This document shows positions 1,824 to 42,451 of a DNA stretch of 48,256 nucleotides, in pieces (positions within the stretch are counted from its first letter, which is position 1; each line of letters begins with the position of its first letter). The notes under the pieces were generated by a model. That model made no database searches, was not told where the DNA came from, and was given only the letters and a program-made list of their open reading frames with translations. The position numbers and the translations under genes are program-made. The DNA comes from a virus: IMG/VR virus record IMGVR_UViG_3300027833_000012, positions 1 through 48,256 of that record; one strand, given 5' to 3'.

Positions 1824-3476
1824 TTAATAGTTATTTTTATCTTTATTTGGGGCATATTTCTCTAATAACTCCAATCTTTTATTAAGAACCTTCTCACTAG
1901 CTGGGTAAAAATTATCACCTCTATTTAAACTCTTAGGCATAAGACTCATTTGCTTATTCTTTCTATCCCTTATTGTTAAGAAGTCATCGTCTTGACCTTC
2001 ACCGAATGGTTTATAAATGTTAGTACCATCAAAGAATGAAACCATAGCATCTTCACCATCTTCATAATCAAAAACAATTGTTGTTTTATTCTTAATAGCT
2101 TCTTCAGAACGTAACAATTTAAATGGTCCTGGTAATGTTGTTTTACCTAAAGTTTCTGAAAATTTAACAACACCAACATCTTCTGAACCCATAGCACATA
2201 AGGCATACTTACCTGATAAGTTATCTCTCTTAAGGTTGTTTCTTCCTCCACCACCTTGTCCGAATAATCCCCAAGCATATGGTGCGTAACCCTTTTCAAT
2301 CATGGCCATCATAATGTCCCACATGTTTTGGTGTGTCATACCATCACCCTCTATAAATCTAAGGGTTGTACCAAAATACCATGTCTTACCATTAATTACT
2401 TCACTAGTACAAAGCCCATTCTTTATAGCTAATTCTATTGTCCAAATAACCTGTTCCAATGCATCCCCAGAATCTGGTCTTGCCACTACAATTTTACCGT
2501 TATTTAACTCAACACTTTTTTGTGCTAAAGGAAGTAACATATTTTCTACAGCATAAAAGTAATCGTTACAGTCGGCTACCATAGAAATAAAAGAATTATC
2601 AGTACAAGAATTGTATATAGCTTGGTAACAGTCATTTTCAAATTCAAAACCTTGTACGTTTCTATGTGCTAAAGCATTTACTGAATTACCAACTGGGGTT
2701 TCACCAGAATTTTTCCAAGCTTGGTATGCACCAGAGCATGTGTCAGTTCCAGGGAATGTGTATAATTGTGCCTTACCCATTATTTCAGATTCTCTAGCAC
2801 AAATACCAGCTCTATCACCAAAGTCAGTTAACATAATTGAGGCTAGGAAAGTTGTTTCCTCATCACTTAAATTTGGATTAACCATGTTAACCATACTTTT
2901 TAATTTAAGTAACCAGTGCTCATTTTGAGTTATCTTTTCTGATACCGCCCAAGTTTGTAATAATTTAGATTCAAACCAAGCTGCTAATATACCCATTCCA
3001 TCAACATCACAAACTATTTGCATGTAAGGTTCATTTGGATACACAACAGAACCTTCTGGTAATGCTTTAATCTTAATTGGTGGACGACCATTAAATTCAT
3101 CTACCACTCTTCTCCATATATTTTCTGGGAATTCATACTCAGATAAGCCATTTGGACCTACTTTAAAGGTGGATAAGAATCTTTTGGTATCATCAATCTC
3201 TTGGTGAGTAATCGGCTCATAGAACAGTTCTTCTAGGATATCACCTAGACCACCAAAAATGATTCTATTATCACCCTCAGTGTAAATTGCAGAATCGATT
3301 GTGATTAATTGTTTTCTAAATACACAGTAATATGTTGACTTATTTTTAACTAATTCACTCTCAAATTTATTTGAACCAACTGTATATGCATCAGCAGTTA
3401 ACAATCTAGGTGTCTTATAAATTTTCTTATTAGGTAAAATAACTTCTCTTTTGATTTCCTTTACTTCTATACTCAT
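1824..3476 (-). CDS. nadV: Nicotinamide phosphoribosyltransferase (NAMPT/NadV)
   Basis: 550 aa, slightly longer than cellular NAMPT. It joins nicotinamide to PRPP to give NMN, the entry step of the two-step NAD+ salvage route. Recognisable stretches are FGDRAGICARESE and TFPGTDTCSGAYQAW in the middle, the PRTase phosphate site VARPDSGDALEQV and GLFGQGGGGRNNLKRD near the C-terminus. It has its own promoter (3499-3530) and starts the run that includes dCMP deaminase and Sir2. The NMNAT-Nudix and kinase genes lie directly upstream on the same strand. NAMPT+NMNAT pairs in phages are known to rebuild NAD+ lost to host NAD-depleting defences. Confidence 0.95.
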   Translation of the reverse strand: MSIEVKEIKREVILPNKKIYKTPRLLTADAYTVGSNKFESELVKNKSTYYCVFRKQLITIDSAIYTEGDNRIIFGGLGDILEELFYEPITHQEIDDTKRFLSTFKVGPNGLSEYEFPENIWRRVVDEFNGRPPIKIKALPEGSVVYPNEPYMQIVCDVDGMGILAAWFESKLLQTWAVSEKITQNEHWLLKLKSMVNMVNPNLSDEETTFLASIMLTDFGDRAGICARESEIMGKAQLYTFPGTDTCSGAYQAWKNSGETPVGNSVNALAHRNVQGFEFENDCYQAIYNSCTDNSFISMVADCNDYFYAVENMLLPLAQKSVELNNGKIVVARPDSGDALEQVIWTIELAIKNGLCTSEVINGKTWYFGTTLRFIEGDGMTHQNMWDIMMAMIEKGYAPYAWGLFGQGGGGRNNLKRDNLSGKYALCAMGSEDVGVVKFSETLGKTTLPGPFKLLRSEEAIKNKTTIVFDYEDGEDAMVSFFDGTNIYKPFGEGQDDDFLTIRDRKNKQMSLMPKSLNRGDNFYPASEKVLNKRLELLEKYAPNKDKNNY

Positions 3477-4071: not shown

Positions 4072-5037
4072 TTACTTTTTATTAAAAAAAGGTTCTTTAA
4101 AGTATATATTATTTTTAATTATCTTTAATAGTGGTATGTGTTCTTCCATAATGGTATCTTCACTTAACATATCGAAATCGAATAGTTTACATTCAACTAT
4201 ATCATCTGAAGCCTCAAGTTTTTTAATATCCCATATTTCACCACAAAATAATGATGTCATGATAGTATCACGTTCTCCACGATATCTCCAATCATCAATT
4301 TTTGTTGACCCTAAGAAAGTTAAAGATTTTAAATCACACTTAGTCTCTTCTTTGAATTCCCTAAGAGCAGCATCTTCTAATGAATCATCTGTTGTGTCAA
4401 CATAACCACCTATAAATCTAAACTTAGGTTCGTTTTGTTTTCTACCCATTAGTATTTTACCTTCCCTAGTCCAACCTATAACATCAACAGTTGGATTAGG
4501 TTTAGCATATCTACCAAAATTAGCCTTAATTACACCTTCACGACCACTTAATGAAGTGATTCTAGTCTTAGAAGTTTCTAATCTAATTTCAGTTGCAGAG
4601 ATGGCTTTGGTACGGGTACCAGATAATTCTATGGTTTCATACTTACCCTCATAGTATGGTATGAATGAATCTCTACCACCATATAAAACAGCTGATGAAT
4701 TACCAAAAGCGTTAGATATTTGAGTATCTAATTTATTAGACCAAATATCATCGTATCGTTCATCAAGTTGTGGTAATATTACGATATTATCGTTACAGTA
4801 ATGCTGTTCTATCATAATTTTCCTAGTTAAAAAATCCAATGGATTTTTTTCTGTTTGAGTAACTCTAGAGACCCCTAAGAAAATTATAACACTATTATGT
4901 TTAGAAATAACATATTCTATTAGTTCTCTGTGTTTTTCGTGTAGGTAAGGTGTTTGAAAACGTCCTACAATGACACCTACATCTATGTTTGAAGTATCAA
5001 TTGAACCGTCAATTGGTTTTAGTTTATATATCTCCAT
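4072..5037 (-). CDS. Bifunctional NMN adenylyltransferase / Nudix hydrolase
   Basis: 321 aa, two domains. Residues about 18-175 are a nucleotidyltransferase of the NMNAT family: VGVIVGRFQTPYLHEKH carries a variant of the ATP-binding HxGH motif and AISATEIR is the ISSTxxR-type motif. Residues about 185-310 are a Nudix domain with a full box (GGYVDTT...LREFKEETK). This matches NadM-Nudix fusions of bacteria and phages: the first domain makes NAD+ from NMN and ATP, the second typically hydrolyses ADP-ribose. With NAMPT downstream it completes nicotinamide-to-NAD+ salvage. It is the first gene after the promoter at 5062-5093. Confidence 0.92.
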   Translation of the reverse strand: MEIYKLKPIDGSIDTSNIDVGVIVGRFQTPYLHEKHRELIEYVISKHNSVIIFLGVSRVTQTEKNPLDFLTRKIMIEQHYCNDNIVILPQLDERYDDIWSNKLDTQISNAFGNSSAVLYGGRDSFIPYYEGKYETIELSGTRTKAISATEIRLETSKTRITSLSGREGVIKANFGRYAKPNPTVDVIGWTREGKILMGRKQNEPKFRFIGGYVDTTDDSLEDAALREFKEETKCDLKSLTFLGSTKIDDWRYRGERDTIMTSLFCGEIWDIKKLEASDDIVECKLFDFDMLSEDTIMEEHIPLLKIIKNNIYFKEPFFNKK

Positions 5038-18711: not shown

Positions 18712-18717
18712 TTATTG

Positions 18718-18786
18718 AGCGAGAAATGGGACTCGAACCCACAACCTTCTGATTGGCCAGACGCTCTACCATTGAGCTATTCTCGC
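18718..18786 (-). tRNA. tRNA-like gene with shortened anticodon loop
   Basis: Good acceptor (GCGAGAA/TTCTCGC), D stem GCTC/GAGC and T loop TTCGAGT, but the anticodon arm is TCTG-GCCAAT-CAGA: a 6-nt loop with no U33. Compared with the near-twin at 18973-19044 (TCTGG-TTACCAA-TCAGA) three bases, TTA, are missing. Unlikely to read codons normally. Confidence 0.65.
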
Positions 18787-20030: not shown

Positions 20031-20036
20031 GTATTG

Positions 20037-20124
20037 TCCGAGAGGTGGGACTCGAACCCACGGTGGAGTCATTAACTCGTCTGGTTAAAAGCCAGGACCG
20101 TTCGCCAACTACGGATACTCTCGG
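20037..20124 (-). tRNA. Class II tRNA with UUU anticodon loop
   Basis: 87 nt, acceptor CCGAGAG/CTCTCGG, A73, and a variable arm with stem GAGT/GACTC, the body plan of Leu/Ser/Tyr tRNAs. Yet the anticodon loop is CTTTTAA (stem CTGG/CCAG), which by position reads Lys codons. Body and anticodon disagree; identity cannot be assigned. Confidence 0.75.
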
Positions 20125-20695: not shown

Positions 20696-20704
20696 AATTA
20701 TTTG

Positions 20705-20800
20705 TCGGGGGTATGGGATTCGAACCCATGGCAAATACGAACAGCGTACCCGCACTGGTTTCCAAGACCAGCCACTTCAACCTTACTCGTGCAACCCCCG
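20705..20800 (-). tRNA. Class II tRNA with UGG anticodon loop
   Basis: 95 nt. Acceptor CGGGGGT/ACCCCCG, A73, long variable region. Anticodon stem CTGGT/ACCAG with loop CTTGGAA: UGG (Pro) by position, though the body is Leu/Ser-like; GGA (Ser) would need a one-base slip. Confidence 0.72.
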
Positions 20801-21143: not shown

Positions 21144-21206
21144 TTTTTTTTAATTTATTTTTTAATTTATTTATAATTCACTGACTATCAGTTTATTATA
21201 TCTTTG

Positions 21207-21280
21207 TAGCGAGAGTCGGATTCGAACCGACGACCTCCAGATTATGAGCCTGGCGAGCTGACCTACTGCTCTATCTCGCA
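21207..21280 (-). tRNA. tRNA-Met(CAU), U1-U72 mismatch
   Basis: TGCGAGA/TCTCGCT acceptor with six pairs and an unpaired U1-U72, D stem GAGC/GCTC, anticodon stem CCAGG/TCTGG with loop CTCATAA (CAU), T loop TTCGAAT, A73. The anticodon stem lacks the three G-C pairs of initiator tRNA. Could also be Ile2 read with lysidine. Confidence 0.85.
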
Positions 21281-21286
21281 ATTTAG

Positions 21287-21359
21287 TAGCGGGGGTAGGA
21301 TTCGAACCTACGACCTCCAGATTATGAGCCTGGCGAGCTAACCACTGCTCTACCCCGCA
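21287..21359 (-). tRNA. tRNA-Met(CAU), second copy
   Basis: TGCGGGG/CCCCGCT acceptor, again with unpaired U1-U72; same anticodon arm (CTCATAA) as the neighbour 7 bases away. Tandem duplicates that differ in the acceptor stem. Confidence 0.85.
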
Positions 21360-21365
21360 ATTTTG

Positions 21366-21539
21366 TTGCCACGATGGGAATCGAACCCACTGCCTCTTCC
21401 TCCAACGGAAGCGAGCTTTGTATTTTTAAAGTTAGCTAAATTCAATTTAGTGATTTGCAACTCACCTCGTTTAAAAACTAACAGTTACTGAATACTTTGC
21501 AATTATATTCAGAGAAATACCCCAATGCTCCACATGACG
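21366..21539 (-). tRNA. tRNA-like gene with about 110-nt insertion in the D loop
   Basis: The 3' part has a T arm GTGGG-TTCGATT-CCCAT and 3' acceptor strand CGTGGCA. The only upstream partner is CGTCATG about 170 nt away, giving six pairs and a C1-A72 mismatch. Next to it GAGC pairs with GCTC as the D stem, so the extra sequence sits in the D loop. The insert folds into hairpins, two with loops containing TTGCAAA. The anticodon arm is CTTCC-GTTGGA-GGAAG, a 6-nt loop reading UGG after U33. Could be intron-bearing, or part of the large RNA upstream. Confidence 0.55.
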
Positions 21540-21551
21540 AATTTATTTAGC

Positions 21552-21626
21552 AGTAATAATCAGACTCGAACTGATACCTTGACAACCCATGTCGCCCTAT
21601 GCTATGACACACAACACCCTATTACT
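21552..21626 (-). tRNA. tRNA-like cloverleaf, anticodon undetermined
   Basis: 74 nt with perfect acceptor AGTAATA/TATTACT, T arm ATCAG-TTCGAGT-CTGAT and G73. The central part (GACA-TGGGT-TGTC hairpin) does not make a normal anticodon arm, so it is a degenerate tRNA or a tRNA-like domain of the large RNA. Confidence 0.55.
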
Positions 21627-21740
21627 AGTTTAGACAGCGGAGGAACATTTTAATTAAAGACTCCGATAGTTCTTTGTTTGTCTCTTATCTTTAATGTAGG
21701 GTCCGAGGACCATCGACTAACATTTAAGACGTATTCTTAG

Positions 21741-21810
21741 TAGAGTATACGGATTTGATACCATATTTCCAACTTTAATAGGTTGGCGACTTACTTAGTC
21801 GAGTACTCTA
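21741..21810 (-). tRNA. tRNA-like cloverleaf with 8-nt anticodon loop
   Basis: 70 nt that fold as a full cloverleaf: acceptor TAGAGTA/TACTCTA (7 of 7), D stem GACT/AGTC with a 5-nt loop, anticodon stem CCAAC/GTTGG with 8-nt loop CTATTAAA, T stem TATGG/CCGTA with loop TATCAAAT. It lacks the TTCRA T-loop motif and the D-loop GG, so it is unlikely to be a working tRNA; more likely a tRNA-shaped domain. Confidence 0.5.
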
Positions 21811-22638
21811 TTTCTTAGCTTGAGTGTTAAGCTTTGATGTTACCATTTTTAACTGTTTCCAGTCTATCACACACCTTCAATTTCTATCTGGTAGATAACA
21901 TTAAGTTGACCTCAGAGTGGTCATTACTCTTTTACATATCCTTATATAAACACTTTCGACACCCAGTCTCCTTGCGAGAGTTAAAAGGGGCTAACCTTCT
22001 ACTTATGACATCTAATTGTTGTTTTAACTTCAACCTTGAGAGTATCCATTATCTATATATTACAACAGAATAACTTAATTTTCAAGATATGTCTATCAGA
22101 ACTTTTTCTTACCAATGTTAATTTTTTAAACAAAATTTTATCTTAATAAGTTCCCTCACAGTTCAGAGTGTGTCTGATAGTTGACATTCGTGCTACCTTT
22201 TGAGTAGTTTAGAATACGACACTCCGATGTAATGTTTTACCATCACGTCAATTAAATTACTTCAAACATACGTGAGCCCTACCGAAGTAGGTAACCCACA
22301 GTTATCCCATAACCTTTCATGATGATTTCAGCTTAATATTTTTTAAATCTTCAGCCGAAATCTAACTACTTATTTATTGATTATTTCTAATCTCAAACCT
22401 CTGAGTTAAAGGTTAAGTGACTCCTAACAGTGTTATCTCGTCACCCATCGTAGCTTGCTTACCTGGATTATAAGCTCCCTCCGAAGAGTTAGCCTTATAA
22501 CGCAATAACACATCCACACTAAGCTTCACGTATTATCACTTTATCCCATCACTGGTTTATCCTTTTGTTACCCGAAGGTAACTGGAGCATAAGCACCCCA
22601 ATATTTTCAATATTTTAATGAACTTTTTATTTCTCTTA

Positions 22639-22670
22639 CAAAGATACTAATTTTTTTATTAGTATGCAAG
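22639..22670 (-). promoter_or_regulatory. Promoter 1 of the large RNA/tRNA transcript
   Basis: Minus strand: TTG, 20-bp spacer, TATCTTTG, a few bases before the first structured part of the RNA. Confidence 0.75.
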
Positions 22671-22723
22671 TTTTTTTTAAACTTTTTTTTTGTAATTTAA
22701 ATAACCTTTTTTTATTTCTTTTA

Positions 22724-31529: not shown

Positions 31530-31561
31530 CAAATATACATAAAAAAAATAAGACTAACAAA
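31530..31561 (-). promoter_or_regulatory. Promoter of KptA
   Basis: Minus strand: TTTG, 20-bp spacer, TATATTTG. Confidence 0.75.
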
Positions 31562-31655: not shown

Positions 31656-31661
31656 GAATAG

Positions 31662-31731
31662 GAATATTGTAGGATTCGAACCTACGACTGCGGCTCTTTG
31701 GCCACCGTGCTAACCTCTACACTAAATATTC
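31662..31731 (-). tRNA. tRNA-like gene with 6-nt anticodon loop
   Basis: Acceptor GAATATT/AATATTC, D stem GTGT/GCAC and T arm GTAGG-TTCGAAT-CCTAC are perfect. The anticodon arm is GTGGC-CAAAGA-GCCGC: a 6-nt loop with no U33 and no readable anticodon. Confidence 0.65.
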
Positions 31732-41161: not shown

Positions 41162-42451
41162 TTAATTCTGTATTTCGATTAAGTATGCAATTGTACACTG
41201 CTTACCGTTATATATTATAAATTCATCATTTCTTAAATCAACACCACCATGTGCATATACACTATCATAACCTTCATTATCCATAACCTTTTTAGATAAC
41301 TTATAACAAGAACTATCATGAGTCTTAATGTGTTTTTGGTTACCAACATGTACATCAAATAAAGCTAAATAACCCTTATTCGAACCACCATTAGTCCAAT
41401 AAGAACCCCTAAGTGAACTATAACCTATCGATTTTTGAGCCTTATTAGCAAAATAAATACCATCACCAAACATACTACCAGTATGTATAGCACCAGAAGG
41501 TCTAATCATAAGTCCAGTTTGTATGATATTAAACCAATTTTCATTCCTGGAACCATGCCAGTAAAGTCTATTCTTTTTAACTCTAGCTTTATTAAAGTTT
41601 TCATCAAAATCAGCTTGAGTTCTTTCATTGATACACTTAAATATTTTCTTAGCTTGTTTTTTATTCTTACCTAATAACTTATATATTAATTTAAGTCTTT
41701 CTTCATCTTCCTCCACAGAAACTTTAAGACCCATTTGTTCAAGTAGTGTTATTTCATCACCCTTATCTTCACCAATCTTGGTGTTAACACTATCTCTTTG
41801 TTGTTTAAGTAATCTTACTTGACCAGCCATAGTATCAAGAGTATCTTGTTCATTAGATAAAAAATCATTTACCTTATCAAGATTATTTTTAACATCAGAA
41901 GTGTTAATTAAATAATCTCTAACATCTTTCATTTCTCTTGGTATTATACTGTATAAGCTAATTAATAATTCATTAAGTTTATTAACATCCATACCTATCT
42001 TAACTGATTTAACAGCATCATTAAGTATGTCTTGAGCCGAATCAATTTGTTTTTGTGTTACGGTATCTTGTGTAACCTTATAATTCTTCTGTATTGCTTT
42101 ATTTGCAAAACTCATTAATTCATCAAAAAGGTTTCTAACCTTAACACAACTAATATCAGCAGTTTTACTTTTATTAGTACCTGTATTATCAGTAATCTTT
42201 TCAGATACCATGTCGGTAACATCTTTATAACCCTTACTATTACTAGTCTTATTCTTATAAATTTTATTCCACTCGTATGATTGTTTATAAACAGTAGTTA
42301 ATCTCTTACCAACTCTACCATATTCACACTTTATCTTACCATCACTTTGTTCTTCCATGATGTAAACCTTATTAGATTGACCCGTCTTACCGTTATCAAC
42401 CGAAACGTGAATAAGCTTTGCAAATTTTAAACCGTTTTCTTTAACTATCAT
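41162..42451 (-). CDS. Poly(ADP-ribose) polymerase (PARP) with WGR domain
   Basis: 429 aa in the order WGR (residues about 10-90, with CEYGRVGKR in the place of the W-G-R core), helical regulatory domain (about 120-280) and PARP catalytic domain (about 285-429). The catalytic H-Y-E triad is intact: H299 in LYWHGSRNENW, Y333 in GDGIYFANK, E410 in NDEFIIYN. The intact Glu fits chain-forming PARPs rather than mono-ADP-ribosylators. It uses NAD+ and releases nicotinamide, the NAMPT substrate made by this phage. WGR domains sense DNA or RNA ends. Own promoter at 42475-42506. Confidence 0.93.
   Translation of the reverse strand: MIVKENGLKFAKLIHVSVDNGKTGQSNKVYIMEEQSDGKIKCEYGRVGKRLTTVYKQSYEWNKIYKNKTSNSKGYKDVTDMVSEKITDNTGTNKSKTADISCVKVRNLFDELMSFANKAIQKNYKVTQDTVTQKQIDSAQDILNDAVKSVKIGMDVNKLNELLISLYSIIPREMKDVRDYLINTSDVKNNLDKVNDFLSNEQDTLDTMAGQVRLLKQQRDSVNTKIGEDKGDEITLLEQMGLKVSVEEDEERLKLIYKLLGKNKKQAKKIFKCINERTQADFDENFNKARVKKNRLYWHGSRNENWFNIIQTGLMIRPSGAIHTGSMFGDGIYFANKAQKSIGYSSLRGSYWTNGGSNKGYLALFDVHVGNQKHIKTHDSSCYKLSKKVMDNEGYDSVYAHGGVDLRNDEFIIYNGKQCTIAYLIEIQN

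What the first reader, a model, noticed from the sequence alone, without database searches (positions are those of the whole stretch)
21366..21539. tRNA-like gene with a large structured insertion in the D loop
Acceptor (6 of 7 with C1-A72) and D stem (GAGC/GCTC) are reunited only if about 110 nt between them are skipped. The insert has two hairpins with TTGCAAA loops. Known bacterial tRNA introns are group I and sit in the anticodon loop, so this would be a different kind.
Basis: partly seen in the sequence, partly recalled or inferred. Interest (0 to 1): 0.72.

Follow-up and report, generated by a model that had tools for sequence, protein, structure and literature searches.

The report
D-loop-expanded tRNA-like RNA beside GOLLD
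A huge phage carries an RNA gene built like a transfer RNA with a large extra folded domain in one loop; the extra piece looks like a permanent part rather than an intron, and similar but smaller RNAs turn up in other phages, often beside a giant RNA of unknown function.

Summary
On the minus strand, 21539-21366 reads as a tRNA with a 101-nt insert (21517-21417) in the D loop; the 5' half is not chance (23 of 20,000 shuffles). ARAGORN and the Rfam tRNA model miss it. It carries initiator-tRNA marks (C1xA72, A11-U24), but its anticodon arm has a 6-nt loop without CAT.

The intron reading is not supported: removing the insert still leaves no normal anticodon loop. Smaller hairpin inserts at the same site occur in 31 distinct viral tRNA-Glu-like RNAs and in three other huge phage genomes; 24 of 33 distinct inserts fold better than their own shuffles. 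The insert looks like a retained structural domain.

Ten phage records hold both such an RNA and GOLLD; in all ten the two lie within 0.85 kb on one strand. In the window a tentative, divergent GOLLD lies 278 nt upstream. A near-identical relative has the GOLLD-like RNA followed by another odd initiator-like tRNA, not this one.

I read it as the largest member found of a GOLLD-flanking class of tRNA-like RNAs. The function is inferred, not shown.

The parts
21533..21539 (-). 5' acceptor strand CGTCATG (positions 1-7), then U8 G9 at 21531-21532
21527..21530 (-). D-stem 5' strand GAGC
   Evidence: pairs 4/4 with 21413-21416
21518..21526 (-). complete D loop ATTGGGGTA (A14, GG, A21)
21417..21517 (-). 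101-nt insert in the D loop: predicted closing helix GUAUUU/AAAUAC (its GUA is taken from the D loop) plus two hairpin arms with TTGCAAA loops; junction ambiguous by one A
   Evidence: -18.9 kcal/mol, z -1.63; folds better than its own shuffles, p 0.017; no other copy in the 187-kb record or in L010/L001
21413..21416 (-). D-stem 3' strand GCTC, then G26 at 21412
21396..21411 (-). anticodon-like arm CTTCC-GTTGGA-GGAAG: perfect stem, 6-nt loop, no CAT
21374..21390 (-). T arm GTGGG-TTCGATT-CCCAT
21366..21373 (-). 3' acceptor strand CGTGGCA and A73
21551..21626 (-). second tRNA-like RNA just upstream: acceptor 7/7, T stem 5/5, odd anticodon arm; not called by ARAGORN or the Rfam tRNA model
21738..22615 (-). 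structured noncoding RNA of about 0.88 kb; 21817-22227 matches GOLLD (RF02032) over the full model at 57.7 bits, below Rfam's 150-bit gathering score
   Evidence: relative L010 56.6 bits; control stretch none
22639..22669 (-). promoter-like sequence TTG...TATCTTTG (Bacteroidota type, motif recalled) ahead of the GOLLD-like RNA and the tRNA-like genes
   Evidence: sequence; no expression data
21286..21359 (-). tRNA-Met (CAT) of initiator type (T1xT72, GAGC/GCTC)
21206..21280 (-). second tRNA-Met (CAT) of initiator type

Best explanation
The locus encodes a stable tRNA-like RNA, derived from an initiator tRNA, whose D loop has been expanded by a retained 101-nt folded domain. It is the largest found here of a class of D-loop-expanded tRNA-like RNAs that flank GOLLD or GOLLD-like RNA in phages. 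Most likely the tRNA body (acceptor, T arm, elbow) lets RNase P and tRNase Z cut the long GOLLD/tRNA transcript and gives a stable product. The odd anticodon arm means it does not decode normally. The D-loop domain is an added binding module, for the giant RNA or a protein. Shown: anatomy, recurrence in other phages, selection for structure in the inserts, and proximity to GOLLD. Inferred: processing, stability, loss of decoding, binding role.
For: Anatomy and chance test. Initiator marks C1xA72 and A11-U24; all six other initiator-type tRNAs read here have a 1-72 mismatch (G000 two and LR745206 two; L010 one; L057 one). Same-site inserts in LR745206, LR756502 and LR756504 and in 31 distinct viral Glu-like RNAs; acceptor 7/7 in 30 of those 31 (entry cut 6/7). 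24 of 33 distinct inserts fold better than shuffles at p<=0.05, focal p 0.017. GOLLD in 8 of 34 such records against 1 of 50 control records, Fisher p 0.0026. In all 10 records with both, the two lie within 0.85 kb on one strand. The window's own RNA matches GOLLD at E 3.7e-14. Inserted and uninserted copies with compensated anticodon stems in LR756502.
Against: No transcript data. The focal RNA is known from one contig only; the near-identical relative L010 has the GOLLD-like RNA but not this tRNA-like. The focal is initiator-type while every other member found is Glu-type, so common descent of the inserts is not shown. The GOLLD call in the window is below Rfam's gathering score, and neither a sequence profile nor my own small covariance model finds it. 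26 of 34 records with D-loop-expanded Glu-like RNAs show no GOLLD (many are fragments). By my parse 9 of the 31 have a 7-nt anticodon loop and a tenth (L267/L270) reads equally well as 7-nt, so the class is not uniformly non-decoding. The pattern that found the 31 fixes the insert site by design.
Confidence: 0.5

Rival explanations
1. Decaying tRNA gene (pseudogene) in a redundant, fast-shuffling tRNA array: an initiator tRNA hit by a D-loop insertion and an anticodon deletion.
For: Cassettes turn over fast: L010 replaces 21737-21227 with one different tRNA-Met. Several other tRNAs of the record have odd anticodon loops (4-nt at 18717, 6-nt at 31661). Two good initiator tRNAs sit next to it.
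Against: Acceptor, D stem, anticodon stem and T stem all still pair. The insert folds better than its shuffles (p 0.017). Recurrent hairpin inserts at the same site in other phages.
Confidence: 0.27
2. A spliced tRNA intron in the D loop, cut by an unknown endonuclease and sealed by the phage's own RNA ligases, with KptA removing a 2'-phosphate.
For: The record encodes RNA_lig_T4_1 and RNA_ligase domain proteins, an AAA_33 kinase-like protein, a CCA-adding enzyme and KptA. Archaeal tRNA introns are known at 20/21 and 22/23 (PMC4090602, passages). Archaeal hits to my pattern mostly keep normal anticodon loops.
Against: The insert-free form still has a 6-nt anticodon loop and no CAT. At 101 nt it is too short for group I or II (recalled) and Rfam gave no intron family. 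No splicing endonuclease family was among those Pfam listed (only ORFs of 200 aa or more were scanned, and one list was cut at 25 of 31 families). The repair enzymes have a known alternative role in mending tRNA cut by host nucleases (PMC7824862, PMC9503650, passages).
Confidence: 0.1
3. A decoy or partner RNA for a protein, for example a tRNA mimic that titrates an anticodon nuclease or binds the phage's TROVE/Ro-like protein, as Y RNA does.
For: The phage protein with DUF2828/DUF7788 folds like TROVE/Ro (Foldseek 9kop E 9.6e-9, 2nvo E 2.3e-7; model pLDDT 80). The YrlA tRNA-like domain has been suggested to inhibit an anticodon nuclease competitively (PMC7790460, passages).
Against: No YrlA match at the focal site. 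LR745206, which has such RNAs, has no tblastn match to the TROVE-like protein.
Confidence: 0.1
4. A chance or assembly-made juxtaposition of two tRNA halves.
For: Tandem tRNA copies do mimic long D loops in my scans.
Against: 23 of 20,000 shuffles; the insert holds no T arm; the two halves match as one initiator-type tRNA.
Confidence: 0.03

Closest known systems
Bacterial initiator tRNA (tRNA-fMet)
   Same: C1xA72 mismatch, A11-U24 in the D stem, A73, class I shape (marks recalled)
   Different: 101-nt D-loop domain; 6-nt anticodon loop without CAT; no three G-C pairs in the anticodon stem
GOLLD RNA with its tRNA neighbours (RF02032; PMC12286853, passages read)
   Same: Large phage RNA near tRNA islands; tRNAs sometimes lie in the GOLLD linker; env-38 GOLLD was found downstream of a Met-tRNA
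   Different: In the passages read nothing is said of D-loop-expanded tRNA-like RNAs; the window's GOLLD-like RNA is too divergent for Rfam's cut-off
Archaeal non-canonical tRNA introns (20/21, 22/23; PMC4090602, passages read)
   Same: Insert in the D loop of a tRNA gene
   Different: There excision restores a tRNA with a normal anticodon loop; here it would not
Bacterial Y RNA (YrlA)
   Same: tRNA-like module plus an added stem; a TROVE/Ro-type protein is encoded by the phage
   Different: The focal RNA has a closed acceptor and tRNA 3' end and does not match YrlA
Pseudo-tRNA (tRNAOther) of Bacillus cereus (PMC3399842, search listing and abstract start only)
   Same: tRNA-shaped RNA not used in translation yet with a phenotype
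   Different: Not phage-borne in what I saw; no D-loop domain mentioned there

Membership tests
tRNA (class I) | acceptor, D, T arms with U8, A14, GG, TTCRANY | tested here: met
   6/7, 4/4, 5/5 pairs
tRNA (class I) | 7-nt anticodon loop with U33 and an anticodon | tested here: not met
   5-bp stem leaves a 6-nt loop
tRNA (class I) | found by standard tRNA models | tested here: not met
   ARAGORN, Rfam
bacterial initiator tRNA | 1-72 mismatch and A11-U24 | tested here: met
   sequence; rule recalled
bacterial initiator tRNA | CAT anticodon and three G-C pairs in the anticodon stem | tested here: not met
   CTTCC-GTTGGA-GGAAG
group I or II intron | match to intron covariance models | tested here: not met
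   (no intron family listed); 101 nt
protein-spliced (BHB) tRNA intron | bulge-helix-bulge at the junctions | tested here: inconclusive
   focal 8/10, p 0.56, but the 20 archaeal-type controls score no better
protein-spliced (BHB) tRNA intron | spliced product in the cell | not testable with these tools
   no RNA data
GOLLD (the upstream RNA) | score over Rfam gathering cut-off | tested here: not met
   57.7 bits against 150
GOLLD (the upstream RNA) | full-length covariance match above noise | tested here: met
   E 3.7e-14 and 7.2e-14; control stretch none; negative
Y RNA (YrlA) | match to RF02553 at the locus | tested here: not met
   only 20.2 bits, at 21251-21319, not at the focal RNA
tmRNA | match to RF00023 | tested here: not met
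   not at the focal locus; a tmRNA lies elsewhere in the record
D-loop-expanded, GOLLD-flanking tRNA-like RNA (class proposed here) | structured insert between GG and A21; GOLLD within 0.85 kb on the same strand | tested here: met
   depends on the tentative GOLLD call

The most novel reading that the evidence does not exclude
Phages keep dedicated tRNA-like RNAs with an extra D-loop domain as working partners of the GOLLD nanocage RNA, as processing punctuation and possibly as its cargo or docking piece. The window's 174-nt RNA would be the most elaborate of them and a handle on GOLLD's unknown function.
Probability: 0.3. Interest if true: 0.82.

Novelty: new variant of a known kind. Interest (0 to 1): 0.62.

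Why it matters
GOLLD forms RNA cages and has no known function (PMC12286853, passages). If tRNA-like RNAs with an added domain consistently bracket it, they are specific partner candidates that can be tested directly. These RNAs are also missed or misnamed by ARAGORN, so phage tRNA counts overlook them. I found no description of the class in nine full-text searches; the library lacks most subscription papers, and the Mycobacterium GOLLD paper was not held.

Tried and rejected
Mobile element: no other copy of the insert in the 187-kb record, L010 or L001. Self-splicing intron: no Rfam match. BHB splice motif: the test failed on archaeal-type controls as well, so I draw nothing from it. Initiator-type D-loop inserts elsewhere: 71 viral stretches matched the pattern; on pairing (top 40 hits printed) I saw no convincing case, and L047 looks like a partial tandem copy. 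Insert-free form elsewhere: no record of 50,697 with a place covering 80% of the 73-mer. Close relative of the whole: no match for 21360-22700 in phages, one viral contig. GOLLD by sequence profile: first run void because strands were mixed, repeat negative; small own model negative. The first structural alignment A4 also had mixed strands and was not used. tRNA-like ends on a 214-nt stretch near 85 kb turned out to belong to a tmRNA.

Rows dropped: 77 matches parsed, 11 with acceptor below 6/7 set aside; of the genome hits I read several bacterial ones (L299, L301, L303, L307, L309) as partial tandem duplications by eye. One search printed tandem copies at 21359-21207 and in L027 and L060, which I judged artefacts by eye; one search printed L027 again. 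The product of chance probabilities is rough and not used.

Full report
What is there. On the minus strand 21539-21366 reads, 5' to 3': acceptor CGTCATG, UG, D stem GAGC, D loop ATTGGGGTA, a 101-nt insert, D stem GCTC, G, anticodon-like arm CTTCC-GTTGGA-GGAAG, AGGCA, T arm GTGGG-TTCGATT-CCCAT, acceptor CGTGGCA, A73. ARAGORN lists 28 tRNAs in the window but not this one, and the Rfam tRNA model does not list it. With the 3' half fixed, an equally good 5' half with U8, A14 and GG arises in 23 of 20,000 shuffles of the upstream 203 nt. The cloverleaf is as stable as the free minimum (-41.8 against -42.0), no more.

What kind of tRNA. C1xA72, A11-U24 and A73 are initiator features (rule recalled). 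The two good tRNA-Met next door share the GAGC/GCTC D stem and carry T1xT72. The anticodon arm has a perfect 5-bp stem but a 6-nt loop without CAT, so even with the insert removed this is not an ordinary decoding tRNA.

Surroundings. A promoter-like TTG...TATCTTTG at 22669-22639 precedes a noncoding RNA of about 0.88 kb (22615-21738). It folds at -218.5 kcal/mol (z -3.7 on mononucleotide shuffles). Against the relative L010 it has 33 differing columns; in a fold made from the same two sequences 3 pairs change on both sides, 6 on one side, none breaks. On a short stretch Rfam's GOLLD model matches it over its full length at 57.7 bits, E 3.7e-14, and at 56.6 bits in L010; a control stretch of the same length gave no GOLLD. 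This is far below the 150-bit gathering score, searches over longer stretches missed it, and a sequence profile and my own small model of the GOLLD 3' part do not see it. I call it GOLLD-like, tentatively. Between it and the focal RNA lies a second undetected tRNA-like, 21626-21551.

A close relative. L010 is 95.5% identical over the GOLLD-like RNA and the gene upstream but has no focal RNA. Its GOLLD-like RNA is followed at once by one tRNA-Met that is odd in another way: by my reading T1xT72, an 8-nt anticodon loop and a long variable arm. So the cassette after the giant RNA changes, yet in both phages it holds odd initiator-like tRNAs.

The class. A strict scan for cloverleaves with D loops of 14-135 nt returned the focal RNA, one in LR745206 (421470-421558), one in L057, and tandem artefacts, with no hit in 2.1 Mb of shuffled sequence. 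A second scan, looser in most cuts (117 records, 3.10 Mb), added LR756502 434039-434154 and LR756504 308513-308601; its acceptor cut was raised to 5.5, which the focal RNA with its mismatch and two G-U pairs does not reach, so it is not in that list; one shuffled hit reached 17.35 in 4.2 Mb. LR745206 also has two further copies, identical over 92 nt, on either side of its GOLLD. LR756502 has both an inserted copy (L182 from 3785) and an uninserted one (4847-4919) of the same tRNA; they share the first 20 bases, their anticodon stems differ by compensation (GTGTC/GACAC, ATATC/GATAT), and the GOLLD lies between them. A pattern for Glu-type D arms with 12-42 extra bases gave 37 viral and 35 genome stretches. 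After requiring acceptor pairing of at least 6/7, 66 of 77 parsed matches remain, among them 31 distinct viral RNAs. Many genome hits are archaeal tRNAs with normal 7-nt anticodon loops, which fits the known archaeal D-loop introns (PMC4090602, passages).

Intron or domain. In the phage RNAs the inserts vary from 13 to 101 nt. 24 of 33 distinct ones fold better than shuffles of themselves at p<=0.05 (combined p 1e-23; related inserts are not independent), the focal at p 0.017. Many are short hairpins with UUCG-, CUCG-, GAAA- or GUAA-type loops. By my parse of the 31, 9 have a 7-nt anticodon loop, 7 have no clear arm, and the rest have 3-6 nt loops on stems of 4-6 bp; one of the rest (L267/L270) can equally be read as a 7-nt loop. 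These facts fit a retained structural domain in the naturally variable stretch of the D loop better than an intron. I could not test splicing, and my splice-motif test failed on its own controls.

Link to GOLLD. GOLLD is found in 8 of 34 records with such viral RNAs and in 1 of 50 viral control records (Fisher p 0.0026). Counting LR745206 and LR756502, 10 records hold both, and in all 10 an expanded tRNA-like lies on the GOLLD strand within 0.85 kb: downstream at 145-849 nt in six, upstream at 531-793 nt in four (the LR756502 copy is, since the exact pattern misses it). In the window the focal RNA is 278 nt downstream of the tentative GOLLD match. The 2025 cryo-EM paper says GOLLD often lies near tRNA islands, that tRNAs sometimes lie in its linker, and that one was found downstream of a Met-tRNA (PMC12286853, passages).

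How it most likely works. The long transcript from the promoter would carry the GOLLD-like RNA, two tRNA-likes and two tRNA-Met. The tRNA bodies would be cut out by RNase P and tRNase Z, setting the ends of the giant RNA and leaving stable tRNA-likes. The D-loop domain would stand out from the elbow and could bind the giant RNA or a protein. Only the anatomy, recurrence and proximity are shown; transcription, processing and binding are inferred. The phage also encodes a T4-type RNA ligase, a second RNA ligase domain protein, an AAA_33 kinase-like protein and a CCA enzyme, KptA, and a TROVE/Ro-fold protein. Jumbo phages are thought to use such a kit to mend cut tRNAs (PMC7824862, PMC9503650, passages), so it is not evidence for splicing.

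Noticed in passing
L014:1970-3400 (-), about 90.2-91.7 kb of the record: DUF2828/DUF7788 protein whose predicted structure matches TROVE/Ro proteins (9kop, 2nvo); 18 viral relatives found. A possible Ro60-like protein in phages.
   Followed up: partly
L013:16500-16868 (-), about 84.8-85.1 kb of the record; also L159:13799-14169: Phage-encoded tmRNA (RF00023, 64.5 and 56.5 bits) in this phage and a distant relative; its 5' part seems to overlap the 3' end of a protein-coding gene.
   Followed up: partly
18717-18786, 31661-31731 (-); LR745206 407364-407437: tRNAs with 4-nt or 6-nt anticodon loops but sound acceptor and T arms.
   Followed up: partly
L148:1470-1558, L182:4847-4919, L183:3964-4052: Glu-like phage tRNAs share an anticodon arm that reads as an 8-nt loop CTTTTCAG/CTTTTCGG; possible frameshift-type tRNAs or non-decoding ones.
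   Followed up: no
20036-20124 and 20704-20800 (-): tRNAs with a long variable arm but Lys (TTT) and Pro (TGG) anticodons.
   Followed up: no
record 70961-71037 (-): tRNA with a CTA anticodon (amber-reading, labelled Pyl by ARAGORN).
   Followed up: no
30848-31540, 41162-42451, 1824-3476 (-): KptA/Tpt1, a PARP-domain protein and a nicotinamide phosphoribosyltransferase: an NAD/ADP-ribose set.
   Followed up: partly
L010:4275-4367: Odd tRNA-Met directly after the GOLLD-like RNA in the relative, with a long variable arm.
   Followed up: partly
record, T loops at 61139, 62711, 68315 (-): Further tRNA-like RNAs of roughly 108-165 nt with long extra arms; the ones near 62.7 and 68.3 kb are matched by the Rfam tRNA model, the one near 61.1 kb is not.
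   Followed up: partly
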